A DNA stretch of 40,195 nucleotides from Pseudomonadota bacterium. Its GTDB lineage: Bacteria; Pseudomonadota; Gammaproteobacteria; Burkholderiales; Thiobacillaceae. Location: assembly GCA_030684775.1 (NCBI GenBank), contig JAUXXW010000102.1, positions 1 through 40,195 of the forward strand. The letters run 5' to 3'. Shown here one piece after another: positions 23,398-39,988 of this stretch. The notes beneath the pieces are model-generated. The model was not told where the DNA came from and made no database searches. It saw only the letters and a list, made by a program, of their open reading frames with translations. The translations under genes were made by a program, and so were the position numbers. The first letter of the stretch is position 1. Every line of letters starts with the position of its first letter.

Positions 23398-24147
23398 ATG
23401 CATATGAACATATCCGCCCGCGCCGCGTGGGCTCCCGGTCTTGGCGACCTCACCGCGTGGCGATCCTGGCCAGACGATACGCCGCACCCGCAAGGGGCAA
23501 GTCTGATTACGACTCCACTGCCACTGGACGATGGCTCGGCGCCGGACATTCGTTTCGTCGATGCTCTATTGCGCCGCCGCCTGGGACGGCTATCACGCAT
23601 GGCGCTGCACGTTGCAGAAGCGGCATCGACGGGAATGCCATCGCTCCCGACCGTATTCGCCTCGCGCCACGGCGAACTGTCGCGAACGGTGGGAATTCTG
23701 CATGCGCTGGCCGCCGACGAAGCCCCCTCCCCCACTGCCTTCAGCCTCTCTGTACACAACTCCGCCGCCGGCATTCATGCCATCGCCCGCGCTGATCACT
23801 CGCCCGCCACGGCACTGGCCGCCGGCGAGGAAACCCTGCTCTGGGCCTTGCAGGACGCGGCCGTCCGCCTGGCCGCCGATCCCGATTCGGCGATCCTGCT
23901 GGTCTATGCCGATGAACCCCTGCCCGGCGAATACCAAGCGTTTTCCGCCTCCCGCGAGCCGGCCCATGCAATCGCCTTGTTGCTGCGATCCGGCGCGGGC
24001 TTGCGGCTGGAATGGAACGAGAACACGAGCCATCAGCCCTCTCGGGAACCCCTTTCCCTGATGCTGCTGGCACACCTGCTGGGGCGGCAAGAAGACATCG
24101 TCTGGCATGGCGAGCGGCTGTCCGTACATGGCCATAACCATGTTTGA
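23398..24147 (+). CDS. apeC: Ketosynthase-like chain-length factor, ApeC-like (first APE gene)
   Basis: This 249 aa protein matches the short beta-ketoacyl-synthase-like family (Ketoacyl-synt_2). It has the half-thiolase elements RFVDALLRRRLGRLSRMAL and SLSVHNSAAGIHAIA. The active-site cysteine of ketosynthases is replaced (HNSAAG), so it should not condense on its own. In the E. coli APE system a protein of this kind pairs with the ketosynthase ApeO as a KS-chain-length-factor heterodimer, so it probably pairs with the ketosynthase at 36379. The start may be the ATG at 23398 or 23404. The stop overlaps the next gene. Confidence 0.82.
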   Translation: MHMNISARAAWAPGLGDLTAWRSWPDDTPHPQGASLITTPLPLDDGSAPDIRFVDALLRRRLGRLSRMALHVAEAASTGMPSLPTVFASRHGELSRTVGILHALAADEAPSPTAFSLSVHNSAAGIHAIARADHSPATALAAGEETLLWALQDAAVRLAADPDSAILLVYADEPLPGEYQAFSASREPAHAIALLLRSGAGLRLEWNENTSHQPSREPLSLMLLAHLLGRQEDIVWHGERLSVHGHNHV

Positions 24148-24934
24148 GCGGGCGAACTATCTCTGGCGGCTGGGTGTGACCGGCGCCTGTTTCGCCTTGT
24201 TCAGCATCGGCGGCTCGCTGCTCACCGCCCTGGTATTCCCGCCACTACGCCTGTTGCCGGGTGGCGAGCCCCACCGCAACCGGCGGACCCAGGCGCTGAT
24301 TCAACGCTTCTTCTCCTTGTTGATTGGCCTGCTGCGCGGATTGGGCGTCATGCGCCTGGAATTGCACAACGCCGAGGCCTTGAGTCGCTGCCGCAACATG
24401 CTGGTGTTCGCCAATCATCCCAGCTACCTGGACGTCGTCGTGATGCTGTCGTTGATGCCGCGTTCCTCCTGCGTGGTCAACAGCCGTCTCTGGGGCAGCC
24501 CGTTCTGGGGCGGCGTGGTGCGCGCCGCCGGTTACATCCGCAACGATGCGCCGGAAACCCTGGTGGACGACTGCGTCGCGGCGCTGGAGGGTGGCGAGCC
24601 CCTGATCATCTTCCCCGAAGGTACCCGCAGCGTGCCTGGGCGCCCGCTTCGCATGTCGCGCGGCGCCGCCCACATCGCATTGAGAAGCGGCCGCGACATT
24701 CTGCCGGTGGTGCTCACCTGCGACCCGCCGACCCTGACCAAAGGCATGCCCTGGTACCACATCCCACGCCGCGCCTTCACCTTCCGCCTGGAAGTCGGCT
24801 CGCCGCTCAAGGTGTCGGACTGCGTCGATCTCGATGAACCGGCCAGCCTCGCCTCGCGCAAACTCACCGCTTATCTGGAAAACTATTTCACAAGGGAACT
24901 GAATCGCCATGAATGTCGCAACCAACGAACTTGA
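24128..24934 (+). CDS. 1-acyl-glycerol-phosphate-type acyltransferase (LPLAT)
   Basis: This 268 aa membrane-associated acyltransferase has the catalytic HX4D motif (His97-Asp102, NHPSYLD) and FPEGTRS at residues 162-168. An N-terminal hydrophobic helix (residues 15-40) anchors it. In aryl polyene clusters such enzymes attach the polyene acyl chain to a lipid or membrane acceptor. The start could also be the ATG at 24140. It overlaps both its neighbours by about 20-26 bases. Confidence 0.88.
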   Translation: MAITMFERANYLWRLGVTGACFALFSIGGSLLTALVFPPLRLLPGGEPHRNRRTQALIQRFFSLLIGLLRGLGVMRLELHNAEALSRCRNMLVFANHPSYLDVVVMLSLMPRSSCVVNSRLWGSPFWGGVVRAAGYIRNDAPETLVDDCVAALEGGEPLIIFPEGTRSVPGRPLRMSRGAAHIALRSGRDILPVVLTCDPPTLTKGMPWYHIPRRAFTFRLEVGSPLKVSDCVDLDEPASLASRKLTAYLENYFTRELNRHECRNQRT

Positions 24935-25187
24935 ATCCGCCATCAAGGCGCTGATCGTCGATGCCCTGCAACTGGAAGACATCCAGCCCGAGGACATCGA
25001 CACCGACGCGCCCCTGTTCGGCGAGGGCTTGGGCCTGGATTCCATCGACGCGCTGGAACTCGGCGTTGCCCTGAAAAAACGCTTTGGCCTGACCCTTGCC
25101 ACCAACGACCCCGACATCAAAGACCATTTCCGTAGTGTGGGCAGCCTTGCCCACCTCATTGCCCAGCAACGCGCCAACCAAGCCTGA
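24909..25187 (+). CDS. apeE: Acyl carrier protein 1
   Basis: This 92 aa acidic carrier protein has the phosphopantetheine site LGLDSIDALELG (Ser45). In the APE pathway one of two ACPs carries the aryl starter and growing polyene; ApeE is the usual name for the first. The symbol is by position and similarity. It overlaps the acyltransferase 3' end and is followed after eight bases by the second ACP. The adjacent transferase gene should activate it. Confidence 0.85.
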   Translation: MNVATNELESAIKALIVDALQLEDIQPEDIDTDAPLFGEGLGLDSIDALELGVALKKRFGLTLATNDPDIKDHFRSVGSLAHLIAQQRANQA

Positions 25188-25195
25188 ACATACCC

Positions 25196-25441
25196 ATGAC
25201 CGACGACGACATCCTCAACCGCCTGCGCGACATCCTGGTCGAGAACTTCGAGATCACCCCCGAAGCCGTGACCCTGGAAGCCCATCTTTACGAAGAACTT
25301 GGCCTGGACAGCATCGACGCGGTCGATCTGGCCATCAAGGTGCAGCAACTCACCGGCAAACGCATCAAGCCGGAAGATTTCAAGCATGTGCGCACCGTGG
25401 GCGACGTGGTCGCCACCGCGCGGCAACTGCTCGCGGCCTGA
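25196..25441 (+). CDS. apeF: Acyl carrier protein 2
   Basis: This 81 aa carrier protein has LGLDSIDAVDL (Ser39) and the family end VRTVGDVVATARQLL. It differs clearly from the first ACP, so the two probably serve different steps, for example starter loading and chain extension. The division of labour is inferred from other APE clusters. The start has no strong ribosome site. Confidence 0.85.
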   Translation: MTDDDILNRLRDILVENFEITPEAVTLEAHLYEELGLDSIDAVDLAIKVQQLTGKRIKPEDFKHVRTVGDVVATARQLLAA

Positions 25442-25447
25442 GCTGTT

Positions 25448-26020
25448 TTGAAATTTTTTCTCATCCTGCTGCGCGGCCTGTTGTTCGCCGCGCTGCCGTT
25501 TCTCGTCTACTTCGCGCTGCAACATTTCCAGCCGCGCGAAGTGGCGCTGTTGCTACTGACTTTGTTGCTGCTGCGCGCGCCCGGGAAAGCACTCGCCTTT
25601 CTTCGTCGACAAGGGCCTCGCGCATTCCTGGTCGCGGCGGCGCTATTGGTCATGGTGGCTTTGCTCTGGCACAGCAACGACCCGGTCTGGGTGCTTAGCT
25701 ATCCGGTTTTCATGAATGCGCTGATGTTCAGCCTGTTCGCCGCCTCCCTGCGGCATCCGCCCAGCGCCATCGAACGCCTCGCGCGCCTGCGCCACCCCGA
25801 CCTGCCGCCCGAGGGTGTCGCTTATACCCGGCGGATCACCCAGGTCTGGTGCGGCTTCTTCGTCGCCAATGGCGGCATCGCCGCCTGGACCGCATTTGCC
25901 GCCTCGCGGGAAACCTGGGTGCTCTACAACGGCCTGGTTTCCTACCTGTTGATGGGCGCGCTGTTCGCCGGTGAGTGGCTGTACCGGCGCTGGCATTTCG
26001 GTACTGAAGCGACGCGATGA
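25448..26020 (+). CDS. Conserved APE-cluster membrane protein (COG4648 type)
   Basis: This 190 aa integral membrane protein has about five hydrophobic segments (residues 1-30, 30-45, 55-72, 80-95, and 130-185). A family-typical central region TRRITQVWCGFFVANGGIAA is present. The family is found almost only in APE clusters and its function is unknown. It starts with TTG and lies four codons from the ACP stop. Its stop overlaps the next ATG by four bases. Confidence 0.85.
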   Translation: MKFFLILLRGLLFAALPFLVYFALQHFQPREVALLLLTLLLLRAPGKALAFLRRQGPRAFLVAAALLVMVALLWHSNDPVWVLSYPVFMNALMFSLFAASLRHPPSAIERLARLRHPDLPPEGVAYTRRITQVWCGFFVANGGIAAWTAFAASRETWVLYNGLVSYLLMGALFAGEWLYRRWHFGTEATR

Positions 26021-27372
26021 AACTGGCTGAACTCATGGCCGTCGGGCGGTCACCGGATTATCCGGTGGCCTGGGTCGGGGAACGCCTGATCGAATGGGCC
26101 GAATTCAGCGCCCGCGTCACCAAGCTGAGCCATGCCCTCGCGGCGCGTCCGGAACGTGAGTGGCTGCTGGCCTGTGCCGAACCCCACGACTTCGCCGTCG
26201 CCCTGTTCGCCGTCTGGCATAGCAGATGCCGCGCCCTGCTACCGCCGTCGCTACGAGAAGGGGCGATTGCCGAAACCCGGGAACAGGCCGACGGCATCCT
26301 CGACGATCCCTCCATCTGGCCCACCTCGCCTGGCGCGCCTGAAATCCCCTCACTGAAACCGCTCGACCCGGCCCGTGCCGGCCTCGACCTGTTCACCTCC
26401 GGCAGCAGCGGCAAACCGAAACGGATAGCAAAATGCCTGGCGCAACTCGAAGCTGAAGTCGCCACCCTGGAACACCTGTGGGGCGATGGCGAGGGCAGGG
26501 CAACCCGCCCGGTGCTGGCGACGGTGCCGCACCACCACCTCTACGGCCTGCTGTTCCGCCTGCTCTGGCCACTCGCCGCCGGGCGCCCGTTCGACAACCA
26601 GACCTGCACCGCGCCGGAATTCCTCCTCGCCCGCCTGGATCGACTCGGGCCGGGCCGGGTGATCTCCAGCCCCTCGCAACTGGCGCGGATGCACGAACTG
26701 ATTCCACTGGAAAGCCTGGCCGGGCGCGCCACGCAAATCATTTCTTCGGGCGGCCCCCTCGACGCGGCTACGACGGCACGCTTCAAGACGGCGCTCGGCG
26801 AAGCCCCCCTGGAAGTCCTCGGCAGCACGGAGACCGGAGGCATCGCCTGGCGCATCCAGGACGGGGACGACGCCTGGACGCCCTTCCCCGAAGTTGCGGT
26901 GAGTGTTTCCGAGAATTCCGCGCTGTCGCTGGTTTCGCCCTTTCTACCCGAGCGCACCCCGCTGACCACCGATGACGCCGCCGAGATTCTCGACGATGGC
27001 CGCTTCCGCCTACTCGGCCGCCTTGATCGCATCGTCAAAATCGAGGAAAAACGCCTCTCCCTACCCGACATGGAAGCCCGCCTCGCCAGCCACCCCTGGG
27101 TACGCGAGGCCGCCCTGGTCGTGCTGAACGGCCGCCGGCAAAGTCTCGGCGCCTTGCTGGTGCTTACCGAGGAAGGCCGGCGGACACTCGCTCTTGAGGG
27201 TCGCGCCGCCAGCGCCCGCGCCCTGCGCCAGCATCTATCGAACTGGTTCGATGCCGTCCTGCTGCCCCGCCAGTGGCGCTACCCGGATGCGCTGCCCTAC
27301 AACGAGCGCGGCAAGTTGGCCGTGGCCGATCTGGCCCGGCGGTTCGAAACCATGGAAATCCACCATGACTGA
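26017..27372 (+). CDS. apeH: Aryl-acid AMP ligase, ApeH-like
   Basis: This 451 aa member of the ANL adenylating superfamily has the P-loop FTSGSSGKPKR (residues 126-136), a GSTETGGIAWR A5-type motif and LLGRLDRIVKIEEKRLSL, with the final-domain lysine region YNERGKLAVADL. The short form is typical of APE clusters. It should activate an arylacrylic acid (coumarate or cinnamate type) and load it onto an ACP. The ammonia-lyase gene downstream would supply this substrate. Confidence 0.88.
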   Translation: MKLAELMAVGRSPDYPVAWVGERLIEWAEFSARVTKLSHALAARPEREWLLACAEPHDFAVALFAVWHSRCRALLPPSLREGAIAETREQADGILDDPSIWPTSPGAPEIPSLKPLDPARAGLDLFTSGSSGKPKRIAKCLAQLEAEVATLEHLWGDGEGRATRPVLATVPHHHLYGLLFRLLWPLAAGRPFDNQTCTAPEFLLARLDRLGPGRVISSPSQLARMHELIPLESLAGRATQIISSGGPLDAATTARFKTALGEAPLEVLGSTETGGIAWRIQDGDDAWTPFPEVAVSVSENSALSLVSPFLPERTPLTTDDAAEILDDGRFRLLGRLDRIVKIEEKRLSLPDMEARLASHPWVREAALVVLNGRRQSLGALLVLTEEGRRTLALEGRAASARALRQHLSNWFDAVLLPRQWRYPDALPYNERGKLAVADLARRFETMEIHHD

Positions 27373-27721
27373 AGCGATGCCCGTCATTCGCGCCGAGACA
27401 CACACTGACGCCGGCGTCACCCTGCGGCTGTTCGTGCCGGCAGACCTGAACCTGTTCGCCGGCCACTTTCCCGGCCTGCCGCTGCTGCCGGGTGTCGCCC
27501 AGATCCATTGGGCGGCGCGACTGGGCGCGGCGCATTTTCCGATCGACGGCGGTTTCAGCCGCCTGCTCAACATCAAATTCCAGAAGCCGGTACTGCCGGA
27601 CAGCGAACTCGACTTGACGCTGGCTTGGGACGCCACGCGCCGGCAACTGGCATTCACCTACACCTCGGCGGCCGGCTGTCATGCCGCCGGCAAGATCGAG
27701 TTCGCGGCTGAAAACGCATGA
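27365..27721 (+). CDS. apeI: Hotdog 3-hydroxyacyl-ACP dehydratase, ApeI-like
   Basis: This 118 aa hotdog-fold dehydratase has the active-site HFPGLPLLPGVAQ (His34) of FabZ/FabA-like enzymes. It removes water from the 3-hydroxyacyl intermediate in each polyene extension. In the E. coli pathway ApeI works as a heterocomplex with ApeP, encoded here at 37564. The ATG overlaps the ligase 3' end by eight bases, and its own stop overlaps the next gene start. Confidence 0.9.
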   Translation: MTEAMPVIRAETHTDAGVTLRLFVPADLNLFAGHFPGLPLLPGVAQIHWAARLGAAHFPIDGGFSRLLNIKFQKPVLPDSELDLTLAWDATRRQLAFTYTSAAGCHAAGKIEFAAENA

Positions 27722-28464
27722 GCTTCTCCCCCTGCTTCATCGTCCCGGTCTACAACCACGGCGCCACGGTCGGCGCCACGGTGGCGGCCCTGGCGCGGCA
27801 TGATCTGCCCATTTATCTGGTCGACGACGGCAGCGAGGCGAATACCGCCGCCGTGCTGGATCGGCTGGCCGCCAGCACTGCCCAGGTTCGCCTGGTGCGA
27901 CGAACGGCCAATGGCGGCAAGGGCGCGGCGGTGATGAGCGGGATGCGGGCGGCCCATGCCGACGGCCGCAGCCATGCTTGCCAGGTCGACGCCGACGGCC
28001 AGCATGCCCTGGCCGATATTCCGGATTTCCTCGCCGCCGCGCGGGCGAACCCTCAAGCCCTGATCTGCGGCGTGCCGCAATACGACGCCAGCGTGCCGAA
28101 AGGCCGGCTCTACGGCCGCTACGCCACCCACGTCTGGGTCTGGATCGAGACCCTGTCGTTCGCCATCGAAGACTCCATGTGCGGCTTCCGGGTCTACCCG
28201 CTGGCTCCCACCCAACGCCTGATCGACGAGGTGCGTTTGGGGCGGCGCATGGATTTCGACATCGAAGTGCTGGTGCGCCTGTTCTGGCGCGGTGTGCGCA
28301 TCGTCAACCGACCGACGCGGGTGACCTACCCGGAAGGCGGCGTCTCGCACTTCCAGCCACTGCGCGACAACCTGCGCATCTCCTGGCTACATACCCGGCT
28401 GTTCTTCGGCATGTTGCCGCGTCTGCCGTGGCTGCTGGCGAGAAGGGTGATTCGACATGGCTGA
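27718..28464 (+). CDS. Family 2 glycosyltransferase
   Basis: This 248 aa GT2 enzyme has the nucleotide-binding DDGS (residues 36-39) and the DxD-like VDADGQHALAD (91-96). A C-terminal amphipathic region (LRISWLHTRLFFGMLPRLPWLL) may attach it to the membrane. It probably links a sugar or glycan to the polyene. In some APE clusters a glycosyltransferase and an LpxL-like acyltransferase are one fused protein; here the two are separate and in the same reading frame, parted by one TGA (28462-28464). Confidence 0.88.
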   Translation: MSFSPCFIVPVYNHGATVGATVAALARHDLPIYLVDDGSEANTAAVLDRLAASTAQVRLVRRTANGGKGAAVMSGMRAAHADGRSHACQVDADGQHALADIPDFLAAARANPQALICGVPQYDASVPKGRLYGRYATHVWVWIETLSFAIEDSMCGFRVYPLAPTQRLIDEVRLGRRMDFDIEVLVRLFWRGVRIVNRPTRVTYPEGGVSHFQPLRDNLRISWLHTRLFFGMLPRLPWLLARRVIRHG

Positions 28465-28551: not shown

Positions 28552-29484
28552 ATGACGCACTGGTCGAAAATGGCCGAAGTCGGCTCCGCCTGGGGGCTCA
28601 ACCTGACCTTCGCGCTCTATCGTCTCCTCGGCGAACGCGCGGCACGCCTGCTGCTGCATCCCATCGTGTTCTGGTTCTTCCTGTTCGCGCCGCGCGCGCG
28701 CCGCGCTTCGAACGATTATCTGGTTCACCTGCACAGTGTCGGTGGCTTTGAGCATTCCCCCACCTGGCGCGACAGCTACCGCCACCTCTATGCCTTCGCC
28801 AGCGCCGCCCTCGACAAAGTGGCCGCCTGGATGGGCCGCATCGACCTCAAGCGCATCGTCTTCGAGAAACAGGCCGATCTCTACGCCCTGCGCGACTCCG
28901 GACGCGGCGCGGTCATCATCGGCTCCCACCTCGGCAGCCTGGAAACCGCGCGCGCCCTCGCCGCGCGCCTGGGCCAGCACCGCAAGATCAACGCCATCGT
29001 CTACACCGACCACGCCATCCGCTTCAACGCCATCCTGGCGCGCGCCAACCCCGCTTTTGCCGTGAACCTGATCCAGGTTTCACAACTCGGTCCGGACACC
29101 GCCCTCTTACTCGCGGAAAAAATCGAAAACGGCGAACTGCTGTTCATCGTCGGCGACCGCACCTCTCCAGCGGAAAACGGCCGTGTCAGCACCGTCGAAT
29201 TTCTCGGCGCCCCGGCCCCCTTCGCGCAAGGCCCTTTCATCCTGGCCAGCCTGCTCAAGTGCCCGGTCTACCTGTTCTTCTGCCTGGCCGATGACGCGGG
29301 CGAGGGCACGCGACAACGCTTCCACATCCACTTCGAGCATTTCGCCAAGCGCATCGACCTGCCGCGCAAGTCACGAGGTGAAGCGCTGCAAACCCTGGTC
29401 CAGCGCTATGCCGACCGACTCGCGCATTACTGCCGCGCCGCCCCCCTGCAATGGTTCAACTTCTACAACTTCTGGCATCCATGA
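28552..29484 (+). CDS. LpxL-like lipid acyltransferase
   Basis: This 310 aa inner-membrane protein belongs to the LpxL/HtrB acyltransferase family, with the HX4E motif in SHLGSLE (His126-Glu131) and GDRTSPAENGR. A hydrophobic N-terminal segment (residues 30-48) anchors it. In APE clusters it is thought to acylate the polyene-linked lipid. The ATG has AAAGG eight bases upstream. The stop overlaps the ammonia-lyase start. Confidence 0.88.
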   Translation: MTHWSKMAEVGSAWGLNLTFALYRLLGERAARLLLHPIVFWFFLFAPRARRASNDYLVHLHSVGGFEHSPTWRDSYRHLYAFASAALDKVAAWMGRIDLKRIVFEKQADLYALRDSGRGAVIIGSHLGSLETARALAARLGQHRKINAIVYTDHAIRFNAILARANPAFAVNLIQVSQLGPDTALLLAEKIENGELLFIVGDRTSPAENGRVSTVEFLGAPAPFAQGPFILASLLKCPVYLFFCLADDAGEGTRQRFHIHFEHFAKRIDLPRKSRGEALQTLVQRYADRLAHYCRAAPLQWFNFYNFWHP

Positions 29485-31025
29485 ATTCCGACAACAAATC
29501 AAAACCGGTCCTGGGAGGCCGCCCCTTGACCCTCGATGAAGTGGTCGCCATCGCCGCCGGCGCCGAGGTCCGCCTGCACGACGACCCCGGCTACCGCGAC
29601 CGCATCGAACGCGGCGCCGCCTTCGTCGACCGCCTCCTGGCCGAGGAAGGCGAGATCTACGGCATCACCACCGGCTATGGCGATTCCTGCTGTGTCGGCG
29701 TCCCGCTCGATCTGGCCCGGCAACTGCCGGTCCATCTGATGCGCTATCACGGCTGCGGTCTGGGCGAGCATTTCAGTTCGGAACAGACCCGCGCCGTGCT
29801 GGCCGCGCGTCTGGCCTCGCTGGCACAGGGCTACTCCGGCGTGCGCTGGTTGTTGCTGGAACGCATCGCCGCGCTGATCAACCACGACCTGCCGCCCCTG
29901 ATGCCCTCGGAAGGCTCGGTCGGCGCCAGCGGCGACCTCACGCCCCTCTCCTATCTCGCCGCCGTGCTCATGGGCGAGCGCGAGGTCTGGCGCGACAACC
30001 AGCCGGTGGCTGCGGCAAGCGCGCTGGCGGCCGCCGGCATCGAACCCATCCTGCTCGCCCCCAAGGAAGCCCTGGCGATCATGAACGGCACCGCCGTCAT
30101 GACCGGCCTCGCCTGCCTGGCCTGGGCGCGCGCCGACTATCTCTCCCGGCTGGCCACACGCATCACCGCGCTGGCCTCCATCGCCACGCGCGGCAACCCT
30201 GAACACTTCGACCCCGCCCTGTTCGCGGTCAAGCCGCATGCCGGACAGAACGAAGTCGCCGCCTGGATCTGGAGCGATCTCGGCCAACTCCACGACGGCC
30301 CGCCGATGCGTTTGCAGGACCGCTATTCCATCCGCTGCGCGCCGCATGTCATCGGCGTGCTGCGTGACGCCCTGCCGTGGATGCGGCGCGACATCGAAAA
30401 CGAACTCAACAGCGCCAACGACAATCCCATCATCGACCCGGACAGCGAGCGCGTCTTGCACGGCGGCCACTTCTACGGCGGCCACATCGCCTTCGTCATG
30501 GACGCCATGAAGACCGCCGTCGCCAGCATCGCCGACCTGCTCGATCGCCAACTCGCCCTGCTGGTCGACACCCGTTACAACCACGGCCTGCCGCAGAACC
30601 TGTCCGGCGCCGAGGGGCCGCGCGCCGCCATCAACCACGGCTTCAAGGCGGTGCAAATCGGCGCCTCGGCGTGGACGGCGGAAGCGCTCAAGCTGACCAT
30701 GCCGGCCACCAGCTTCTCCCGCTCCACCGAGTGCCACAATCAGGACAAGGTCAGCATGGGCACCATCGCCGCGCGTGACTGCCTGCGCGTGATCGAACTC
30801 GCCGAACAGGTCGCCGCCGCCATGGCGCTGGCCGTCACCCAGGGCATCATCCTGCGCGCCCGCCAGGGTGATCTGCCGGAAGAACGCCTGACCGATGCGC
30901 TACGCGAATTCCGCGACCAGGTCAGCGCCGGCTTCCCCTTCCTGGAAGAAGACCGCCCCCTTGAATCCGACCTGCGCGCCGCGCTGGCGCGCATCCGGGC
31001 GCGGGAATGGGAGTTGTACGCATGA
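29481..31025 (+). CDS. MIO-type aromatic amino-acid ammonia-lyase (HAL/PAL/TAL family)
   Basis: This 514 aa enzyme removes ammonia from an aromatic amino acid to give an arylacrylate. The MIO cofactor forms from Ala149-Ser150-Gly151 in GSVGASGDLTPLSY; Tyr61-region GITTGYG and the FYGGHIAF segment are conserved. At the substrate-specificity site (residues 89-90) it has Tyr-His, whereas tyrosine ammonia-lyases usually have His-Leu, phenylalanine enzymes Phe-Leu and histidine enzymes Ser-His. Its place in the APE cluster suggests Tyr or Phe as substrate, giving the starter for the adenylating ligase. The ATG overlaps the acyltransferase stop. Confidence 0.9.
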   Translation: MNSDNKSKPVLGGRPLTLDEVVAIAAGAEVRLHDDPGYRDRIERGAAFVDRLLAEEGEIYGITTGYGDSCCVGVPLDLARQLPVHLMRYHGCGLGEHFSSEQTRAVLAARLASLAQGYSGVRWLLLERIAALINHDLPPLMPSEGSVGASGDLTPLSYLAAVLMGEREVWRDNQPVAAASALAAAGIEPILLAPKEALAIMNGTAVMTGLACLAWARADYLSRLATRITALASIATRGNPEHFDPALFAVKPHAGQNEVAAWIWSDLGQLHDGPPMRLQDRYSIRCAPHVIGVLRDALPWMRRDIENELNSANDNPIIDPDSERVLHGGHFYGGHIAFVMDAMKTAVASIADLLDRQLALLVDTRYNHGLPQNLSGAEGPRAAINHGFKAVQIGASAWTAEALKLTMPATSFSRSTECHNQDKVSMGTIAARDCLRVIELAEQVAAAMALAVTQGIILRARQGDLPEERLTDALREFRDQVSAGFPFLEEDRPLESDLRAALARIRAREWELYA

Positions 31026-31807: not shown

Positions 31808-32476
31808 ATGTCACTACCTAAGTCAACAGTCAAGATGTTGGCCGGCATCGGATTCCTGGCTCTCCTGGCTTCAGGCTGTGCCACCAATCGTTCCGAAGTC
31901 AGGATCGGTGTGACCGCCACTACCAATCCGGAGACCGGGCGTTACGCCAAGATTTCCGAGGTGCGCGACCTGCGCCGATTTGAAGTCAATCCTTCCAATC
32001 CTTCGCGTGAGTCGTTGGGCAATGCAGACGAAATCAAGGATCCGGCGATTACCGGCAGAGCCTACGCCAGAAAACGGAACGGCTTCGGCAAAGCGCTCGG
32101 TGATGTGTTCCTGCCCGAGGGCCAGTCCGTCTCCGGCGTAGTCGCCGATGCCGCCCGGCAGGCCTTGCGGGAAAAAGGGTATGCCGTGGTCGAAGACGGC
32201 TCCCCATACTACGGGGGCGCACTGCCTTTGTCCCTCGACATCGAACATTTCTGGACATGGATTCGTCCAGGCTTCTGGGCCCTTGAAATGCGGGCGGAGT
32301 CCGATGTTGTTATGAAAGGCGAGGCCTTGCTCGGAGCGCCCTCCCAGCCTGTTCATGGAGAGGCACTGATCAACGCCCAGATTGCTGTCGAAAGCAACTG
32401 GCAGGAAGTCAGCCAAAAAGGCCTGAGCGACCTGGTGGAAAAAATGAAGGCCAAATTACGTGACCCCAAAAACTAA
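31808..32476 (+). CDS. Predicted lipoprotein, not a standard APE gene
   Basis: This 222 aa lipoprotein has an N-terminal signal and the lipobox LASGC (Cys at residue 24). The mature part has a YajG-like look (QSVSGVVADAARQALREKGY), but I cannot place it firmly in a family. It has a strong ribosome site (GGAGG, seven bases upstream). It is not part of known APE gene sets and is preceded by a 229-base gap in which I see no structure, so it may be an insertion or a lineage-specific addition to the envelope machinery. Confidence 0.75.
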   Translation: MSLPKSTVKMLAGIGFLALLASGCATNRSEVRIGVTATTNPETGRYAKISEVRDLRRFEVNPSNPSRESLGNADEIKDPAITGRAYARKRNGFGKALGDVFLPEGQSVSGVVADAARQALREKGYAVVEDGSPYYGGALPLSLDIEHFWTWIRPGFWALEMRAESDVVMKGEALLGAPSQPVHGEALINAQIAVESNWQEVSQKGLSDLVEKMKAKLRDPKN

Positions 32477-32489
32477 GAGTTGCTCAGGT

Positions 32490-33200
32490 ATGGACATATT
32501 GGCACGCTCGCGGCCAACCACCGGCAGAGTGGAATATCCAGCGTCGCTCCGGAAAGCAGGAGTCGGGGCGTCGGTGGCCGGGAGGCGAATACTCGCCCGC
32601 GTCTTTGTCTGGGCATTGCCGCTGTATGTGGTGTCATGGTCGTTTGCCCACGCCTCCCCCGCCCTATCCCAACTCACCGCCCGTCTCGACCAGTCCGGGG
32701 TGATACACGCCGATTTCATCCAGACCAAGACCCTCATGGCCCTGAAGCGGCCACTGCGTACCTCGGGCCAGTTGGTGTTCGCGCGCGGCCAGGGGGTGTT
32801 GTGGCGGATCGAGAAGCCGTATCAGGCGAGTTACGCGCTGAACGCGGACAGCGTCACCGAGGTCGGGCCGGGCGGTAGCCGCCGGGTACGCGCGGCGCGC
32901 GAGGTGCCGGCGCTGGCGCAGGTGGGGCGGGTGTTCCAGGCTATTTTCCAGGGCGACATCAAAGGCCTGGAGGAGCATTTCGAGGTAACGACGAGCGGGG
33001 ACGCCGAACGCTGGCGCGTCGATCTGGCGCCGAAGCCGGCGTTGGCGCGCTTTCTGAAAGGCATCAGCGCGCGCGGCGGGCGTTTCCTCGACCTCATCGA
33101 AGTCGAGGAAACCCAGGGTGATCGCACCCGCATCGAATTCCGCAATTCGCGCCTGGATGCGCCGTTGTCGGAAGCGGAAGCGCGGCTGTTGCGAAATTGA
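32490..33200 (+). CDS. LolA-like outer-membrane lipoprotein carrier
   Basis: This 236 aa protein has a periplasmic LolA-like domain (SGVIHADFIQTKTLMALKRP, TSGQLVFARGQGVLWRIEKP). LolA-like proteins of APE clusters are thought to shuttle the lipid-linked polyene through the periplasm. The signal peptide is near residues 43-64. The ATG at 32490 leaves a long positively charged N-terminal tail; a GTG at 32574 with AGGAG upstream would give a more usual signal peptide and may be the true start. Confidence 0.82.
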   Translation: MDILARSRPTTGRVEYPASLRKAGVGASVAGRRILARVFVWALPLYVVSWSFAHASPALSQLTARLDQSGVIHADFIQTKTLMALKRPLRTSGQLVFARGQGVLWRIEKPYQASYALNADSVTEVGPGGSRRVRAAREVPALAQVGRVFQAIFQGDIKGLEEHFEVTTSGDAERWRVDLAPKPALARFLKGISARGGRFLDLIEVEETQGDRTRIEFRNSRLDAPLSEAEARLLRN

Positions 33201-33345: not shown

Positions 33346-35718
33346 ATGATGCGCCTGCGCGCCTGGATCTGGCTGGCTTGCGCCGCGCTGCTGTTGGCGG
33401 TGACGGTGGCGCGTTTCGTGCCGGAGCCGCCGATCGAAACCGACTTGCTGGCCTTGTTGCCACCTACCGAACGCAATCCCCTGGCGGAACAGGCCGCCAC
33501 GCGACTGGGGCGGCTGACCGGCGAGCGGGCGGTGTTTCTGGTCGGCCTGCCAGACAGTAAAACGAATGGCGCGGATGCGCGCGCCGCCGCCAGCCTGCTG
33601 GCCGCGCGGCTGGAAGATGGCAAGACTTTCAAGAAGATCGTCACCCGCATTCCCGCCCCCGACCCGGCGGCCCTGCTGGATCTGTATATCCCGCATCGAA
33701 TGGGCCTGATCGCGCCGGAACTGCGCGGCGAGACATTCTCGCCGGACAACCTGGCGGCGCGACTGGATGCCCGCCTGGCCAGCCCCTTCGGCGGCGGCGG
33801 CGCGCTGCCGCTGGCGACCGACCCCTTCGGCCTGTTCGATGCCTGGCTACAGTCCCTGCCCTACCGGCAATTCCGCCTTACGCTGGAGGATGGCTGGCTG
33901 ACCGTTCGCGAGAGTGGCGGGATGACCTGGGTACTGGTCAGCGGCGAACTGGCCGGGTCGGCTTTCGCCCCCGTCGTGCAACAAGGTTTGCAGGCCAGGC
34001 TGCCGGCGGCGGAAGCGGAAATGCGGCGACGCTGGCCCGGCGTCCAGGTGCTGCGCGCCGGCGCGGTGTTTCACGCGACGGCGGCGCGCGCGAGCGCGGA
34101 ACGGGAGATGCATGTGATCGGCGTCGGCTCGCTGCTCGGCATCGTCCTGCTGCTGCTGCTGGCCTATCGCTCCGCCGGCCCGCTGGCGCTGGGGCTGCTC
34201 TCGGTCGGGGTCGGCATCTGCGCGGCGGTGCTGACCACCACCTGGGTGTTCGGCCGCCTGCACCTGATGACCCTGGTCTTCGGCGCCAGCCTGATCGGCG
34301 AGGCCATCGACTACGCCATCCAGTACTTCTCCGCGCGCCTGGGCGCCGGGCCGGAGTGGGATGCGCGGCGCGGCCTGGCGACGGTGTTCCCGGCATTGGC
34401 CGTGGCCCTGGCGACCAGCGTGGTGGGTTATGCCGCGCTTTCCTTCACGCCCTTCCCCGCCATGCGCCAGATCGCGGTATTCGCCATCAGCGGTCTCGCC
34501 GCCGCCTGGCTCACCGTGGTGCTGGTGTTGCCCTGGTGGCTGGCGCGGCCGCAAACCTGGACACCAGGCCGGCTGCTGGCGTTACCGGGGCGGTGGCTGA
34601 ATCTCTGGCGCGCCCATGTGACACCACGCGCCTTCCTGGTCTTTACCGGTCTGGCCTTGCTGGTGGCGGTTTCAGGTGGCGCGCGCTTGACCGCCGATGA
34701 CGACATTCGCCAACTGATCCAGTCGCCACCCGACCTGACCGCGCAGGAACGCCAGTTGCGCGCGCTCACCGGCCTGGAAGCGGGCAGCCAGTTTTTCCTG
34801 ATCGAAGGCGACAGCCCGGAACAGGTACTGCAACGCGAGGAAGCCCTGGCTTCGTTACTGGCCGACCGGGGTATCGAGTTGCAAGGCCTCTCTCGCTTCG
34901 TGCCCTCCTGCCGACAACAGCAACACGACCACCAGCGCCTGCGCGACGCACTGCCCGCCGCCCGCCAGGTGCTGGAGGACGCAGGATTCCGCGCGGAAGC
35001 GATCGCCGATTGGAGCAAACAGATTGGCACTGCCCCCGGCGACTGCCTTGCCCCTCAAGCCTGGCTGGACTCACCACTTTCAACCCCTTTCCGCCATCTC
35101 TGGCTGGGACAGGCCAACATGGAGACCGGGGTTGCCACCGGGGTTGCAACACTCGCACTGCCTTCCGGCTACCAGGAAGTCACGGCGCTGACCGAGGCAA
35201 GCCGTGGCCTGCCCGGCGTGACTCTGGTCGACAAGCCCGGCGCGGTGTCGCGTTTGTTCGCGGAATACCGCCGTCTCGGCATCTACGTGATTGCCGCCGC
35301 CACCCTGCTGATCTTCGCCGTCCTGGCCTGGCGCTATGGCCCGCGCGGCGCCGTGGCGGTGCTGGCGCCGGTGCTGCTGGCGCAGGCGCTGACCCTGGGG
35401 TTGCTCGGCCATGCCGGCGTGGTGCTGAACCTGTTCAACCTGCTGGCATTGCTGCTGGTGTTGGGGGTGGGCATCAATTACGCCATCTTCCTGTTCGAGG
35501 GCGCGCGCGGCGAGCCGGGGCAACAACCGGCCTCGCGGGAGGCCGCCGCCCTGCTCGGCGTCGCCCTGTCGGCAGCCACCACGCTGCTGTCCTTCGGACT
35601 ACTCAGCCTGTCTTCCATGCCGGCTCTGGCCGGATTCGGCATCACCCTCGCGTTGGGCGTCGGGATCGCGGTGTTGCTGGCGCCGGCGGTGCTGGTACTG
35701 GCGCGGAGATCATCATGA
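33346..35718 (+). CDS. MMPL/RND-type exporter
   Basis: This 790 aa inner-membrane transporter has the two-fold MMPL layout: one helix at the start, a periplasmic loop, a block of about five helices (residues 255-430), a second loop and a second block of helices (residues 640-785). Signature segments are FGASLIGEAIDYAIQYFSA and LLLVLGVGINYAIFLFEG, with acidic and polar residues in the helices. In APE clusters it is thought to export the polyene or its lipid conjugate to the periplasm. The start is ATG at 33346 or 33349; a repeat adjoins it. Confidence 0.92.
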   Translation: MMRLRAWIWLACAALLLAVTVARFVPEPPIETDLLALLPPTERNPLAEQAATRLGRLTGERAVFLVGLPDSKTNGADARAAASLLAARLEDGKTFKKIVTRIPAPDPAALLDLYIPHRMGLIAPELRGETFSPDNLAARLDARLASPFGGGGALPLATDPFGLFDAWLQSLPYRQFRLTLEDGWLTVRESGGMTWVLVSGELAGSAFAPVVQQGLQARLPAAEAEMRRRWPGVQVLRAGAVFHATAARASAEREMHVIGVGSLLGIVLLLLLAYRSAGPLALGLLSVGVGICAAVLTTTWVFGRLHLMTLVFGASLIGEAIDYAIQYFSARLGAGPEWDARRGLATVFPALAVALATSVVGYAALSFTPFPAMRQIAVFAISGLAAAWLTVVLVLPWWLARPQTWTPGRLLALPGRWLNLWRAHVTPRAFLVFTGLALLVAVSGGARLTADDDIRQLIQSPPDLTAQERQLRALTGLEAGSQFFLIEGDSPEQVLQREEALASLLADRGIELQGLSRFVPSCRQQQHDHQRLRDALPAARQVLEDAGFRAEAIADWSKQIGTAPGDCLAPQAWLDSPLSTPFRHLWLGQANMETGVATGVATLALPSGYQEVTALTEASRGLPGVTLVDKPGAVSRLFAEYRRLGIYVIAAATLLIFAVLAWRYGPRGAVAVLAPVLLAQALTLGLLGHAGVVLNLFNLLALLLVLGVGINYAIFLFEGARGEPGQQPASREAAALLGVALSAATTLLSFGLLSLSSMPALAGFGITLALGVGIAVLLAPAVLVLARRSS

Positions 35719-36260
35719 AAATAGCGTCAATCCTTCTCTTGTTGATCTCCCTCGCCGGCTGCGCCAGCCCGCGCTGCCCGGACATTCCCGGCGGCCCCCG
35801 TTACTGCCTGCAAGCGACCTCGGCGGTGCCGCCTTTCGTTGCCTTGCAGGACATCCGCATCCAGCGCGGCAAGCTCGACGAACGCCTGATCGCGCAACTG
35901 GAAGTGGATGCGAACAACATGAATCTGGCCGGCCTGACGCCGATGGGACAAAAGGTGCTGGAGGCGCGCTTCGACAACGAGGTCGCCACCGCCGACAGCC
36001 TTGCCGGCGACCGCTTCGACGCGCGCGCGCTGCTCTCCCTGGTGCAGATCGCGGTGTGGCCGGCGGCCAGCGTGCGCGCCGGCCTCGGCGACGATTGGGA
36101 ATTGCTGGAAACGCCCGCCCTTCGCCGTCTGCTGCGCGATGGCGCCTCCATTGTGGAAGTGGCGCGGATCGGCGAACCGCCAGCTTATCGACAACTGGAC
36201 ATCCGCCTGCCCGACGCGGGCTTGTCGCTGACCGTGCGGGCGATCGAGGAGGAGGAATGA
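35715..36260 (+). CDS. DUF3261 lipoprotein of APE clusters
   Basis: This 181 aa lipoprotein has a signal and lipobox LAGC (Cys16). The rest matches the DUF3261 type (VALQDIRIQRGKLDERLIAQ and LLSLVQIAVWPAASVRAGLG), known from aryl polyene clusters. It is probably an outer-membrane lipoprotein that accepts or anchors the pigment. Function is inferred only from context. The ATG overlaps the exporter stop by four bases. Two palindromes follow it. Confidence 0.85.
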   Translation: MKIASILLLLISLAGCASPRCPDIPGGPRYCLQATSAVPPFVALQDIRIQRGKLDERLIAQLEVDANNMNLAGLTPMGQKVLEARFDNEVATADSLAGDRFDARALLSLVQIAVWPAASVRAGLGDDWELLETPALRRLLRDGASIVEVARIGEPPAYRQLDIRLPDAGLSLTVRAIEEEE

Positions 36261-36365: not shown

Positions 36366-36378
36366 AGGTCGCGCCACG

Positions 36379-37563
36379 ATGATTCCCGTCTATATCTCCG
36401 CCCTCGGCCTGGTCAACGCCCTCGGCAACAGCCGCGAGGAAGTGCGCGAGCGTCTACTGGCCGGCGACGGTTCCGGCATGGTTCGCGAAAGCGGCTGGCT
36501 GACCTCCGGTGAAGAAGCGCTGGTCGGCAAGGTGCGGGGTGAACTGCCCACGCTGCCCGAACATCTGGCCCGTTACGACTGCCGCAACAACCGCCTGCTG
36601 CTGGCCGCCCTGGCGCAGATCGGCGAGCAAGTCGAACAGGCCATCGAGCGTTATGGGCGCGCCCGCGTCGGCGTCGTGCTGGGCACCAGCACTTCCGGCA
36701 TCGCCGAGGGCGAGGCGGCCATCGCCGCGCTAGATCGTGACGGCGCCATGCCGGCCAGATTCGACTACGCCCGCCAGGAGATCGGCACGGCGGCGCCTTT
36801 CCTGGCCCGCCATCTCGGCCTACTGGGGCCGGCCTACACGGTCTCCACCGCCTGCACTTCCAGCGCCAAGGCCCTGGTTTCGGCCCGCCTGCTGCTGGCG
36901 GCGGGGGTTTGCGACGCGGTGCTGGCCGGCGGCGTCGACAGCCTCTGCCGGCTCACCGTGAGCGGTTTCACGGCGCTGGAATCGGTCAGCCCGGAACGCT
37001 GCAACCCGATGAGCGCCAACCGTCGCGGCATCAATATCGGCGAGGGCGCGGCCCTGTTTTTGCTGACCCGAGAGACGGCGGCCATCGCCCTGCTCGGCCA
37101 CGGCGAATCCAGCGACGCCCACCACATCTCGGCGCCGCACCCCGAGGGCCTGGGCGCGGAAGCGGCGATGCGCGCGGCGCTTGGCGATGCCGGCCTGGAG
37201 CCGACCGACATCGCCTACGTCAATCTGCATGGCACCGCCACAGTCAAGAACGATGAAATGGAAAGCCGCGCCATGCGCCGGGTTTTCCCCTCGAACACCC
37301 CGGCCAGCTCCACCAAGCCGCTGAGCGGCCACACCCTGGGCGCGGCCGGCGCCACTGAAATTGCCTTCTGCTGGCTGGCCCTTACGGACGATAATGCACG
37401 CCTGCCGCCGCACGTCTGGGATGGCGTCGCCGATCCGGCGCTGCCCCCCCTGCGCTTGGCGCGGCTGGGAGAACGCATGCGGTCGGAGAAGCCGCGCGTA
37501 ATGATGAGCAATGGGTTTGCCTTCGGCGGCAGCAATGTCAGTCTGATCATTGGAGAGCGGTAG
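36379..37563 (+). CDS. apeO: Ketosynthase ApeO-like
   Basis: This 394 aa thiolase-fold condensing enzyme has a complete Cys-His-His site: Cys159 (STACTSSA), His284 (NLHGTATVKND) and His318 (KPLSGHTLGAAG). In the E. coli APE system the corresponding ApeO forms a heterodimer with a chain-length-factor-like ApeC; here a matching half lies at 23398. It would extend the polyene chain on ACP by two carbons per cycle. The open frame continues upstream into the repeats, but the ATG at 36379 matches the family start. Confidence 0.9.
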   Translation: MIPVYISALGLVNALGNSREEVRERLLAGDGSGMVRESGWLTSGEEALVGKVRGELPTLPEHLARYDCRNNRLLLAALAQIGEQVEQAIERYGRARVGVVLGTSTSGIAEGEAAIAALDRDGAMPARFDYARQEIGTAAPFLARHLGLLGPAYTVSTACTSSAKALVSARLLLAAGVCDAVLAGGVDSLCRLTVSGFTALESVSPERCNPMSANRRGINIGEGAALFLLTRETAAIALLGHGESSDAHHISAPHPEGLGAEAAMRAALGDAGLEPTDIAYVNLHGTATVKNDEMESRAMRRVFPSNTPASSTKPLSGHTLGAAGATEIAFCWLALTDDNARLPPHVWDGVADPALPPLRLARLGERMRSEKPRVMMSNGFAFGGSNVSLIIGER

Positions 37564-38016
37564 ATGTATCCCCCCAGATTTCCCGCAATCGAGGAATTGC
37601 TGACGCATCGCGGCAACATGCTGCTGATCGACCGCGTTATTGGTTTTGACGCGGACGGCGTCCAGGTCGAGGCCCGCGTCGATGGCGAGGCCTGGTACGC
37701 CGATGCGGATGGGGCGATGCCGGCCTGGATCGGCATCGAGTTGATGGCCCAGGCCATCGCCGCGCTGGTCGGCCTCGCCGCCCGAGAAAAAGGCCTGCCG
37801 CCGAAACAAGGGCTGCTCCTCGGCACACGCGGTTTCACCGCGAGCGTGCCGGCATTTAGTCGAAATACAACCCTGGTGGTGTCGGCCAGCGAGGTGTTTC
37901 AGGAAACAAATGGGCTGGCCGCTTTCGACGCCCGCATCGAACAGGCGGGAGAGACCGTGGCGGAGGCCACGCTGAAAGTGTTTGAACCAGCGGATTTCAA
38001 AGTGATCGTGGAGTAG
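37564..38016 (+). CDS. apeP: Hotdog dehydratase ApeP-like
   Basis: This 150 aa hotdog protein belongs to the ApeP/FabZ-like dehydratase family: FPAIEELLTHRGNMLLIDRV near the start and the active-site helix WIGIELMAQAIAALVG. In E. coli it forms a heterocomplex with ApeI that dehydrates the 3-hydroxyacyl-ACP. The start directly follows the preceding TAG and has GGAGAG upstream. The ketoreductase gene starts on its stop codon. Confidence 0.9.
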   Translation: MYPPRFPAIEELLTHRGNMLLIDRVIGFDADGVQVEARVDGEAWYADADGAMPAWIGIELMAQAIAALVGLAAREKGLPPKQGLLLGTRGFTASVPAFSRNTTLVVSASEVFQETNGLAAFDARIEQAGETVAEATLKVFEPADFKVIVE

Positions 38017-38765
38017 TGAAAGTGACAGAGAAGGCGAACGAGAAAAAACGTGTCCTAGTAACCGGCTCCAGCCGAGGCATAGGCAGGGAAATCGCGCTGC
38101 AACTCGCGCGTGACGGTTTCGCCGTGACGGTGCATTGCCGCAAGAGCCGCGCGGAAGCCGAGGCGGTCGTGAATGAGATCAAGGCCGACGGTGGCCAGGC
38201 CGATCTGCTGTTTTTCGATGTCACCGACCGTGCCGGCACGCGCCAGACGCTGGAAGACGCCGTCGCGGTGCATGGCGCCTTCTGGGGCCTGGTGGTCAAC
38301 GCCGGCATCGCCCGTGATGGCGCGTTCCCCGCCCTCACCGCGGAAGACTGGGACGAGGTCATCGATACCGGGCTCAATGGCTTCTTCAACATCACCCAGC
38401 CCCTGGTCATGCCGCTGGTGCGCATGAAAAAAGGCGGGCGCATCGTGGTCATGACCTCGGTTTCCGGCGTCATCGGCAACCGCGGCCAAGTCAACTACAG
38501 CGCCGCCAAGGCCGGCCTGATCGGCGCCGCCAAGGCGTTGGCGGTGGAACTGGCGAGCCGGGGCATCACCGTCAACTGCGTCGCGCCCGGCCTGATCGAC
38601 ACAGACATGGTGAAAAATCTCCCGCTCGACGAGGCGCTGAAAATGGTGCCGTTGAACCGCCTGGGCAAACCGGAAGAAGTCGCCGCCGTGGTCGCGTTTC
38701 TCATGTCGCCGGGCGCCGCTTACGTCACCCGCCAGGTCATCGGCGTCAACGGGGGAATCGTCTGA
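38016..38765 (+). CDS. apeQ: 3-ketoacyl-ACP reductase ApeQ (FabG-like)
   Basis: This 249 aa short-chain dehydrogenase reduces the 3-ketoacyl-ACP intermediate with NADPH. The cofactor motif TGSSRGIG lies at residues 16-23, NAGI follows at about 95-98, and the catalytic set is Ser148, Tyr161 and Lys165 (VNYSAAKAG). It starts with GTG, with GGAG five bases upstream. The stop overlaps the start of the last ketosynthase. Confidence 0.93.
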   Translation: MKVTEKANEKKRVLVTGSSRGIGREIALQLARDGFAVTVHCRKSRAEAEAVVNEIKADGGQADLLFFDVTDRAGTRQTLEDAVAVHGAFWGLVVNAGIARDGAFPALTAEDWDEVIDTGLNGFFNITQPLVMPLVRMKKGGRIVVMTSVSGVIGNRGQVNYSAAKAGLIGAAKALAVELASRGITVNCVAPGLIDTDMVKNLPLDEALKMVPLNRLGKPEEVAAVVAFLMSPGAAYVTRQVIGVNGGIV

Positions 38766-39988
38766 TGCGCCGCGTCGTCGTCACCGGCATGGCCGGCATC
38801 ACCTCGCTGGGCGACACCTGGCCCGAAATCGAAGCGAATCTGCGCGCCGGCCGCACCGGCATCCGCCAGATGCCGGACTGGGAGCGCTTCGGCGACCTCA
38901 ATACCCGCCTCGGCGGCCCGGTCGAGCACTTCACCACCCCCGCCCATTACCCGCGCCGCATGGTCCGCTCGATGGGCCGTGTCGCCCTGTTGTCGGTGCG
39001 CGCCACGGAAATGGCCCTGACTGACGCCGGACTGATCGAAGACCTCACAATCCGCGACGGAAAAATGGGCATCGCCTACGGCTCCTCGGCGGGCAGCATG
39101 GAACCGCTGCGGGCGTTCGGCCAGATGCTGGAGACCGGCAGCATGCTGGGCGTCACTTCCACCAGCTACATCCAGATGATGAGCCACACCAGCGCGGTCA
39201 ATATCGGCCTGTTCTTCGGCCTCAAGGGCCGCATCATTCCCACCAGCAGCGCCTGCACCTCGGGCAGCCAGGCCATCGGCTACGCCTATGAAGCCATCCG
39301 CTTCGGCCGCCAGGACCTGATGGTCGCAGGCGGCGCGGAAGAACTCTCCGCCCTGGATGCCGCCGTGTTCGACACCCTGTTCGCCACCAGCACCCAAAAC
39401 GACACCCCGGAACGCACCCCGCGCCCCTTCGACACCACCCGCGACGGCCTGGTGGTGGGCGAAGGCGCGGCCACCCTGATCCTGGAAGAACGGGAACACG
39501 CCCTCGCCCGCAGCGCCACGATCTACGCCGAAATCGTCGGCTTCGCCTGCAACTCCGACGGCGCCCACATCACCCAACCGGAAGCCGCGACCATGGCCAC
39601 CGCGATGCGCCTCGCCCTGAGCGACGCCGGCCTGAAGGCTGCGGCCATCGGCTATGTCAACGCCCACGGCACCGCCACTGATCGCGGCGACATCGCGGAA
39701 ACCCAGGCCACCGCCGAAGTCCTCGGCCGGGTGCCCATCGCCTCCCTGAAGGGCCACTTCGGCCACACCCTGGGTGCCTGTGGCGCCATCGAAGCCTGGC
39801 TGGCCATCGAAATGATGCGCAATGGTTGGTTCGCCCCGACCGCGAATCTGGAGAACGTAGACCCGAATTGCGGCGAGTTGGACTACCTGACAGGCATTGG
39901 ACGGGAAATGCGGGTGGAATATCTCATGAGCAATAATTTTGCGTTTGGGGGGATCAATACATCGCTGATATTCAGGAGGAATGAATAA
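38765..39988 (+). CDS. apeR: Ketosynthase ApeR-like
   Basis: This 407 aa condensing enzyme has a complete active site: Cys164 (SSACTSGSQA), His301 (VNAHGTATDRGD) and His334 (KGHFGHTLGACG). In the E. coli cluster ApeR is a second ketosynthase, active as a homodimer, proposed to make early extensions or supply a fatty acyl part. It is the last gene of the cluster; a large palindrome follows. Confidence 0.92.
   Translation: MRRVVVTGMAGITSLGDTWPEIEANLRAGRTGIRQMPDWERFGDLNTRLGGPVEHFTTPAHYPRRMVRSMGRVALLSVRATEMALTDAGLIEDLTIRDGKMGIAYGSSAGSMEPLRAFGQMLETGSMLGVTSTSYIQMMSHTSAVNIGLFFGLKGRIIPTSSACTSGSQAIGYAYEAIRFGRQDLMVAGGAEELSALDAAVFDTLFATSTQNDTPERTPRPFDTTRDGLVVGEGAATLILEEREHALARSATIYAEIVGFACNSDGAHITQPEAATMATAMRLALSDAGLKAAAIGYVNAHGTATDRGDIAETQATAEVLGRVPIASLKGHFGHTLGACGAIEAWLAIEMMRNGWFAPTANLENVDPNCGELDYLTGIGREMRVEYLMSNNFAFGGINTSLIFRRNE

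What the first reader, a model, noticed from the sequence alone, without database searches (positions are those of the whole stretch)
23398..39988. Aryl polyene cluster with its own ammonia-lyase but no methyltransferase
The run of condensing, reducing, dehydrating, ligase, acyltransferase and export genes matches APE pathways. The MIO enzyme inside the operon should supply the aryl starter. No ring methyltransferase and no flavin-dependent halogenase or hydroxylase is present, so the predicted pigment would have an unmodified or singly hydroxylated ring, unlike the methylated E. coli product.
Basis: partly seen in the sequence, partly recalled or inferred. Interest (0 to 1): 0.75.

Follow-up and report, generated by a model that had tools for sequence, protein, structure and literature searches.

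The report
Ordinary aryl-polyene pigment cluster, cut short
This is a standard bacterial yellow-pigment (aryl polyene) gene cluster with its usual ammonia-lyase, and the methyltransferase said to be missing was probably only cut off by the end of the assembled DNA piece, because it sits at the end of another piece of the same genome.

Summary
The cluster is real. Window 22497-39988 carries a phosphopantetheinyl transferase, homologs of E. coli ApeC-ApeL, then RND transporter, DUF3261, ketosynthase, dehydratase, ketoreductase and ketosynthase genes, with an intact MIO ammonia-lyase at 29481-31025.

The headline claim, "no methyltransferase", is an assembly artefact. The window is a whole contig (C107) that ends 207 b after the last gene, just past a palindromic repeat found at 42 places in the genome. 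Contig C147 of the same genome carries, at its own end, an apeA homolog, a methyltransferase 45% identical to E. coli ApeB and a further ketosynthase. In two same-genus genomes all these genes lie on one contig in that order. The predicted head group is therefore methylated, as in E. coli.

The missing flavin halogenase/hydroxylase does hold at genome level, apart from one weak partial hit.

The lyase is common: the 80 loci kept by one search carry it at 59-95% identity, in Vibrio, Shewanella, Herbaspirillum, Massilia and others, and 67 of 80 have six core ape genes around it. Tyrosine is its likely substrate; that is inferred. An ordinary new member of a known kind.

The parts
22497..23135 (-). 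4'-phosphopantetheinyl transferase (would activate the ACPs), divergent from the operon
   Evidence: Pfam ACPS 48.7 bits over cut-off; NCBIfam PPTase models below their cut-offs
23398..24147 (+). ApeC-like chain-length factor (Ketoacyl-synt_2)
   Evidence: Pfam 193.9 bits; 29% identity to E. coli ApeC
24107..24934 (+). ApeD-like lysophospholipid acyltransferase
   Evidence: Pfam Acyltransferase; 39% to ApeD
24909..25187 (+). ApeE-like acyl carrier protein
   Evidence: Pfam PP-binding; 56% to ApeE
25196..25441 (+). ApeF-like acyl carrier protein
   Evidence: NCBIfam PRK05350 over cut-off; 54% to ApeF
25448..26020 (+). ApeG-like membrane protein
   Evidence: 54% over 99 aa to ApeG; no Pfam hit
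26017..27372 (+). ApeH-like adenylating aryl-ACP ligase
   Evidence: Pfam AMP-binding; 32% to ApeH; best NCBIfam model 4-coumarate--CoA ligase, far below cut-off
27365..27721 (+). ApeI dehydratase (start placed by eye within ORF 27194-27721)
   Evidence: Pfam ApeI-like 60.8 bits; 33% to ApeI
27718..28464 (+). glycosyltransferase, N-terminal half of ApeJ
   Evidence: 59% to ApeJ residues 3-242
28552..29484 (+). LpxL-like acyltransferase, C-terminal half of ApeJ
   Evidence: 42% to ApeJ residues 248-550
29481..31025 (+). MIO aromatic amino-acid ammonia-lyase, intact ASG triad
   Evidence: PF00221 522 bits; motifs over 81 sequences
31156..31578 (+). ApeK-like thioesterase
   Evidence: 4HBT; 57% to ApeK
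31808..32476 (+). putative lipoprotein, no family hit; not a typical ape gene
   Evidence: no Pfam or NCBIfam hit
32460..33200 (+). ApeL-like LolA carrier
   Evidence: LolA_3; 32% to ApeL
33346..35718 (+). ApeM-like MMPL/RND transporter (start placed by eye within ORF 33118-35718)
   Evidence: Pfam MMPL
35715..36260 (+). ApeN-like DUF3261 protein
   Evidence: Pfam DUF3261
36379..37563 (+). ApeO-like ketosynthase
   Evidence: NCBIfam PRK09185 over cut-off
37564..38016 (+). ApeP dehydratase
   Evidence: Pfam ApeP-like 73.9 bits
38016..38765 (+). ApeQ-like ketoreductase
   Evidence: Pfam adh_short
38765..39988 (+). ApeR-like ketosynthase, last complete gene before the contig end
   Evidence: Pfam ketoacyl-synt
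40008..40078 (+). 71-b stretch 92% identical to the sequence at the 5' end of the apeA homolog on contig C147
40079..40157 (+). 79-b palindromic dispersed repeat, 42 places in the genome at 94-100% identity; contig ends 38 b later

Best explanation
A standard Gram-negative aryl-polyene locus of the lyase-bearing type, split by an assembly break. Shown from sequence: window genes apeC to apeR plus PPTase and MIO lyase on C107; homologs of apeA and apeB plus a second KS at the end of C147. Inferred from known pathways: the lyase removes ammonia from tyrosine (possibly phenylalanine) to give p-coumarate (or cinnamate); ApeH adenylates and loads it on an ACP; ApeO/ApeC, ApeQ and ApeI/ApeP extend it with malonyl units into a conjugated polyene; ApeB methylates the ring; ApeD and the two ApeJ halves attach the acid to a lipid; LolA, MMPL and DUF3261 proteins carry it to the outer membrane. 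p-Coumaroyl-ACP is also what a 4-hydroxybenzoate starter would become after one extension cycle, so the lyase changes the route in, not the kind of product.
For: Domain content. All 12 E. coli CFT073 proteins compared (ApeA-ApeL) have a homolog: ten in the window, two (ApeA 29%, ApeB 45% over 346 aa, E 3.5e-113) on C147. Contig ends: window stops 207 b after apeR, methyltransferase 850 b from the end of C147. In G022 (506-kb contig) and G016 (47.6-kb contig) the window genes and C147 genes are on one contig in the same order, at 41-99% identity. A 71-b sequence near both contig ends occurs at only these two places in the genome, and a 79-b repeat present at 42 places ends the window. A close methyltransferase (58% or more) is in 5 of 61 genomes, all among the 8 with a close lyase (64% or more); 0 of the 53 others. 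ApeB and this methyltransferase hit the same NCBIfam family, FlxJ, best (470 and 429 bits, both under the cut-off of 560).
Against: No read spans C107 and C147; adjacency is inferred. The stretch between apeR and apeA differs in length and content among relatives (G022 apeR to MT about 1.7 kb, G016 about 4.2 kb). Three of 8 close-lyase genomes lack a close methyltransferase (G005, 77% complete; G043; G049), so it is not universal. No NCBIfam cut-off is met for the lyase or the methyltransferase. A UbiC-like chorismate lyase is also in the genome, so 4-hydroxybenzoate is available as a rival starter.
Confidence: 0.88

Rival explanations
1. One reading: the pathway has no ring methyltransferase and makes an unmethylated aryl polyene.
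For: None found in the cluster part of the contig. Many lyase-bearing APE loci show no ApeB-type gene within their 10-kb flanks: 38 of 67 loci with the six core genes.
Against: ApeB-type gene in the same genome in the conserved neighbourhood. The flank argument is weak: locus L004, which is the G016 contig by its length of 47633 b, shows none in its flanks although the contig carries it.
Confidence: 0.06
2. The C147 methyltransferase serves something else and only happens to resemble ApeB.
For: It is on a different contig in this assembly, and placement on a tree is affected by long branches.
Against: Same apeA-apeB order as E. coli, on one contig with the cluster in G022 and G016, restricted to lyase carriers among 61 genomes. 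In L012, L019 and L081 relatives at 57-62% identity lie inside the ape cluster.
Confidence: 0.06
3. The starter is 4-hydroxybenzoate from the UbiC-like enzyme, as in E. coli, and the lyase has another or an auxiliary role.
For: UbiC-like gene present; E. coli makes its pigment without a lyase in the part of the cluster seen; published ApeH work uses 4-HBA (PMC8253772, passages).
Against: The lyase sits within the operon in the same place in related clusters with residues conserved over 81 sequences; flexirubin has an assayed tyrosine ammonia-lyase starting it (PMC3992019, passages).
Confidence: 0.2

Closest known systems
E. coli CFT073 APE cluster (apeA-apeR)
   Same: Homologs of all 12 proteins compared (ApeA-ApeL), and the apeA-apeB pair in the same order.
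   Different: E. coli has no lyase between apeJ and apeK (annotation). Here apeA-apeB follow apeR instead of preceding apeC, apeJ is two genes, and a further KS follows apeB.
Lyase-bearing APE clusters of Vibrio, Aliivibrio, Shewanella and Burkholderiales (e.g. loci L011, L038, L013, L012)
   Same: Core genes and lyase in the same order; lyase 59-95% identical over the 80 kept loci.
   Different: Most carry a FAD oxidoreductase (53 of the 67 loci with six core genes), which is absent here apart from a weak partial hit.
Flexirubin pathway (FlxA tyrosine ammonia-lyase, FlxJ methyltransferase)
   Same: Ammonia-lyase start and a methyltransferase of the FlxJ family; FlxA was assayed on tyrosine and phenylalanine (PMC3992019, passages).
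   Different: The lyase scores 306 bits against the FlxA model, cut-off 700. No dialkylresorcinol genes were searched for.
Xanthomonadin / arcuflavin clusters
   Same: Type II PKS-like aryl polyene with LolA, exporter and acyltransferase (PMC3949708 and PMC3691225, passages).
   Different: Those start from hydroxybenzoate made by a XanB2-type chorismate enzyme, and the xanthomonadin and arcuflavin clusters carry a halogenase.

Membership tests
Aryl-polyene biosynthetic cluster | KS plus chain-length factor, KR, ApeI and ApeP dehydratases, two ACPs | tested here: met
Aryl-polyene biosynthetic cluster | Adenylating ligase for an aryl acid | tested here: met
   AMP-binding Pfam; 32% to ApeH
Aryl-polyene biosynthetic cluster | Membrane attachment and export set (acyltransferases, LolA, MMPL, DUF3261) | tested here: met
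Aryl-polyene biosynthetic cluster | Makes a conjugated aryl polyene pigment | not testable with these tools
   needs culture or heterologous expression
ApeB/FlxJ methyltransferase (gene on C147) | Sequence similarity to E. coli ApeB along the length | tested here: met
   45% over 346 aa
ApeB/FlxJ methyltransferase (gene on C147) | Passes the curated FlxJ model cut-off | tested here: not met
   429 bits against 560; E. coli ApeB also fails at 470, so I file it as ApeB-type, not as FlxJ
MIO aromatic amino-acid lyase (PF00221) | ASG triad forming MIO | tested here: met
   81 of 81 sequences including the window's
Histidine ammonia-lyase | NCBIfam HAL cut-off; Glu of the QE motif (recalled) | tested here: not met
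   383 bits against 524 and 376 against 539; motif is NQD, not NQE
Tyrosine ammonia-lyase | Activity on tyrosine | not testable with these tools
   residue pattern compatible; best NCBIfam hit is the BagA/FevW TAL model, 392 bits against a cut-off of 1000
APE flavin oxidoreductase / halogenase-like protein | Close relative in the genome | tested here: not met
   own genome only 27% partial hit, E 2.6e-4

The most novel reading that the evidence does not exclude
The APE-linked lyases form a group with their own selectivity signature ([FY]-H at the usual selectivity pair and ECHNQDKVS near the end) that is neither the HAL, PAL nor TAL pattern as I recall them, so they may act on a substrate other than free tyrosine or be tuned to hand product straight to ApeH.
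Probability: 0.12. Interest if true: 0.4.

Novelty: new member of a known kind. Interest (0 to 1): 0.12.

Why it matters
It shows how a biosynthetic absence read from one contig can be an assembly artefact, and it corrects the predicted pigment to a ring-methylated one. Beyond that, it adds one more lyase-bearing APE locus, in a genus where 5 of the 23 genomes searched, the own one included, carry the lyase.

Tried and rejected
Rejected: 'no methyltransferase'. Rejected: that the lyase is unusual for APE clusters. My own slip: the longest-ORF rule picked an antisense ORF over the methyltransferase in G022 and G016, so I first took them to lack it; one search corrected this by tblastn. In one search I read the 240-aa L041 protein as a second kind of methyltransferase by eye; it was not pursued. 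Promoter and terminator scan gave no more than shuffles for promoters (2 found, mean 2.3) and slightly more terminator-like sites (17, mean 13.1), so nothing is built on it. Literature: searches listed no paper that I could see treating the lyase of proteobacterial APE clusters; two papers recalled as central (Cell 2014 and JACS APE papers) are not held, so absence from print is not claimed. The methyltransferase tree has four distant non-APE rows on very long branches and a mislabelled row (L116, which is G010's APE-type gene); L121 was dropped because my script did not recover it. The tree is only supporting. No structure prediction was run.
Full report
What is in the window. Pfam scans identify, on the plus strand from 23398 to 39988, a chain-length-factor-like ketosynthase, an acyltransferase, an ACP, an AMP-binding ligase, an ApeI dehydratase, a family-2 glycosyltransferase, an LpxL-like acyltransferase, an aromatic amino-acid lyase, a 4HBT thioesterase, a LolA protein, an MMPL transporter, a DUF3261 protein, a ketosynthase, an ApeP dehydratase, a short-chain reductase and a final ketosynthase. 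A second ACP lies at 25196-25441 and a phosphopantetheinyl transferase on the minus strand at 22497-23135. Compared with the 12 E. coli CFT073 proteins ApeA-ApeL (the fetched stretch begins inside apeM, so ApeM-R were not compared), ten (ApeC-ApeL) have their homolog in the window. This is an aryl-polyene cluster; chance is not an issue.

The contig edge. The window is the whole of contig C107 of a 3.85-Mb, 227-contig genome, 96% complete. Its last gene ends at 39988 and the contig at 40195. The last 117 b are a 79-b near-perfect palindrome (40079-40157) and 38 b more. That palindrome is found at 42 places in the genome at 94-100% identity, with only 40 of 458 first-look candidates scored, so an assembly break here is unsurprising.

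The methyltransferase. A methyltransferase encoded beside a Vibrio APE cluster (L011:2271-3338:-) finds one gene in the own genome, G000:C147, at 42% identity, E 1e-94. C147 ends 850 b beyond it. Read from that end, C147 carries a lipoprotein fragment, a 156-aa homolog of ApeA, the 366-aa methyltransferase, a ketosynthase, a kinase-like protein and an asparagine synthase-like protein (the last two named by eye). The methyltransferase is 45% identical over 346 aa to E. coli ApeB, and the ApeA homolog 29% over 91 aa to E. coli ApeA. Pfam gives the same Dimerisation2-like plus Methyltransf_2 architecture as the Vibrio gene; the best solved structure is 3dp7, E 2.5e-100, then SibL, 4qvg, E 7.4e-16; NCBIfam gives FlxJ-family methyltransferase for both it and ApeB, both below the cut-off. 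PMC8253772 (passages seen) names ApeB as the likely ring methylase.

Why C107 and C147 belong together. In G022 (one 506-kb contig) and G016 (one 47.6-kb contig) tblastn places two upstream genes, the 20 cluster proteins except those without a match (the thioesterase-LolA interval protein 'Lipo' is missing in both) and the C147 genes in one unbroken order: apeR, lipoprotein, apeA homolog, methyltransferase, ketosynthase, kinase-like, asparagine synthase-like. Identities run from 41% (PPTase in G016) to 99% (an ACP in G022). A 71-b sequence just after apeR in the window recurs 92% identical at the start of the apeA homolog on C147, and a 75-b query covering most of it finds only these two places in the genome. 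I did not see a read or contig that spans the gap, so adjacency is inferred; I put it at about 0.9. G010 has the methyltransferase on another contig too (C77, 92%), its cluster contig also being broken.

Co-occurrence. Among 61 genomes, 8 have a lyase at 64% identity or more (G000, G005, G010, G016, G022, G040, G043, G049) and 5 have a methyltransferase at 58% or more (G000, G010, G016, G022, G040). All 5 are among the 8; of the 53 others none has one (best E 2e-16). Against a strict link: G005 (77% complete), G043 and G049 have the lyase without it.

The lyase. It is intact (ASG triad), and in 81 sequences (window plus the 80 kept loci) the triad is in 81 of 81, a [FY]-H pair at the selectivity position in 81 of 81 and ECHNQDKVSM in 80 of 81. 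The HAL glutamate (recalled) is absent, which speaks for tyrosine or phenylalanine. No NCBIfam cut-off is met; the BagA/FevW tyrosine ammonia-lyase model scores highest. PMC3992019 (passages) reports that the flexirubin enzyme FlxA, with HAL-like residues at one motif and TAL/PAL-like at the other, acts on tyrosine and phenylalanine and not on histidine, so sequence motifs alone are an imperfect guide. The genome also has a UbiC-like chorismate lyase, hence two possible sources of starter.

How common it is. Of these, 67 have six chosen core ape genes on the lyase strand: 23 with both an ApeB-type gene and the FAD oxidoreductase within the flanks, 6 with ApeB only, 30 with FAD only, 8 with neither. 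So lyase-bearing APE clusters are widespread, and clusters without a visible methyltransferase are too, subject to the flank limit: L004, the G016 contig by its length, shows none only because its flank ends too soon.

The flavin enzyme. A FAD oxidoreductase with Trp_halogenase/FAD_binding_3 similarity accompanies many such clusters. In the own genome only a 27% partial hit at E 2.6e-4 appears, and none close in G005, G010, G016, G022, G040 or G049; G043 has one at 78%.

Verdict. An ordinary, complete APE pathway of the lyase-bearing type. The finding's selling point is an artefact of the contig edge. Predicted product (inference): a ring-methylated, hydroxylated aryl polyene lipid.

Noticed in passing
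window 28472-28539, 31020-31113, 36295-36366, 40079-40157: Palindromic repeats in intergenic gaps of the operon; the last occurs at 42 places in the genome at 94-100% identity, and the first has weaker relatives at many places, 72-82% over most of its length.
   Followed up: partly
L101:15595-17646 and 17565-18782 (same-genus genome G016): Between the MMPL and DUF3261 genes G016 has two extra ORFs absent from the window: a glycosyltransferase-28-like protein (below cut-off) and an ORF with an alpha/beta-hydrolase part and a radical SAM/SPASM part.
   Followed up: partly
L114:13768-14991 (own contig C147): A further ketosynthase directly after the methyltransferase, also in G022 and G016; its role is unknown.
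   Followed up: no
window 31808-32476: Putative lipoprotein between thioesterase and LolA with no family hit, not matched in the G022 or G016 stretches.
   Followed up: no
window 40008-40078: The sequence after apeR resembles the 5' end of the apeA homolog on C147 (92% over 71 b), like a short duplicate.
   Followed up: partly
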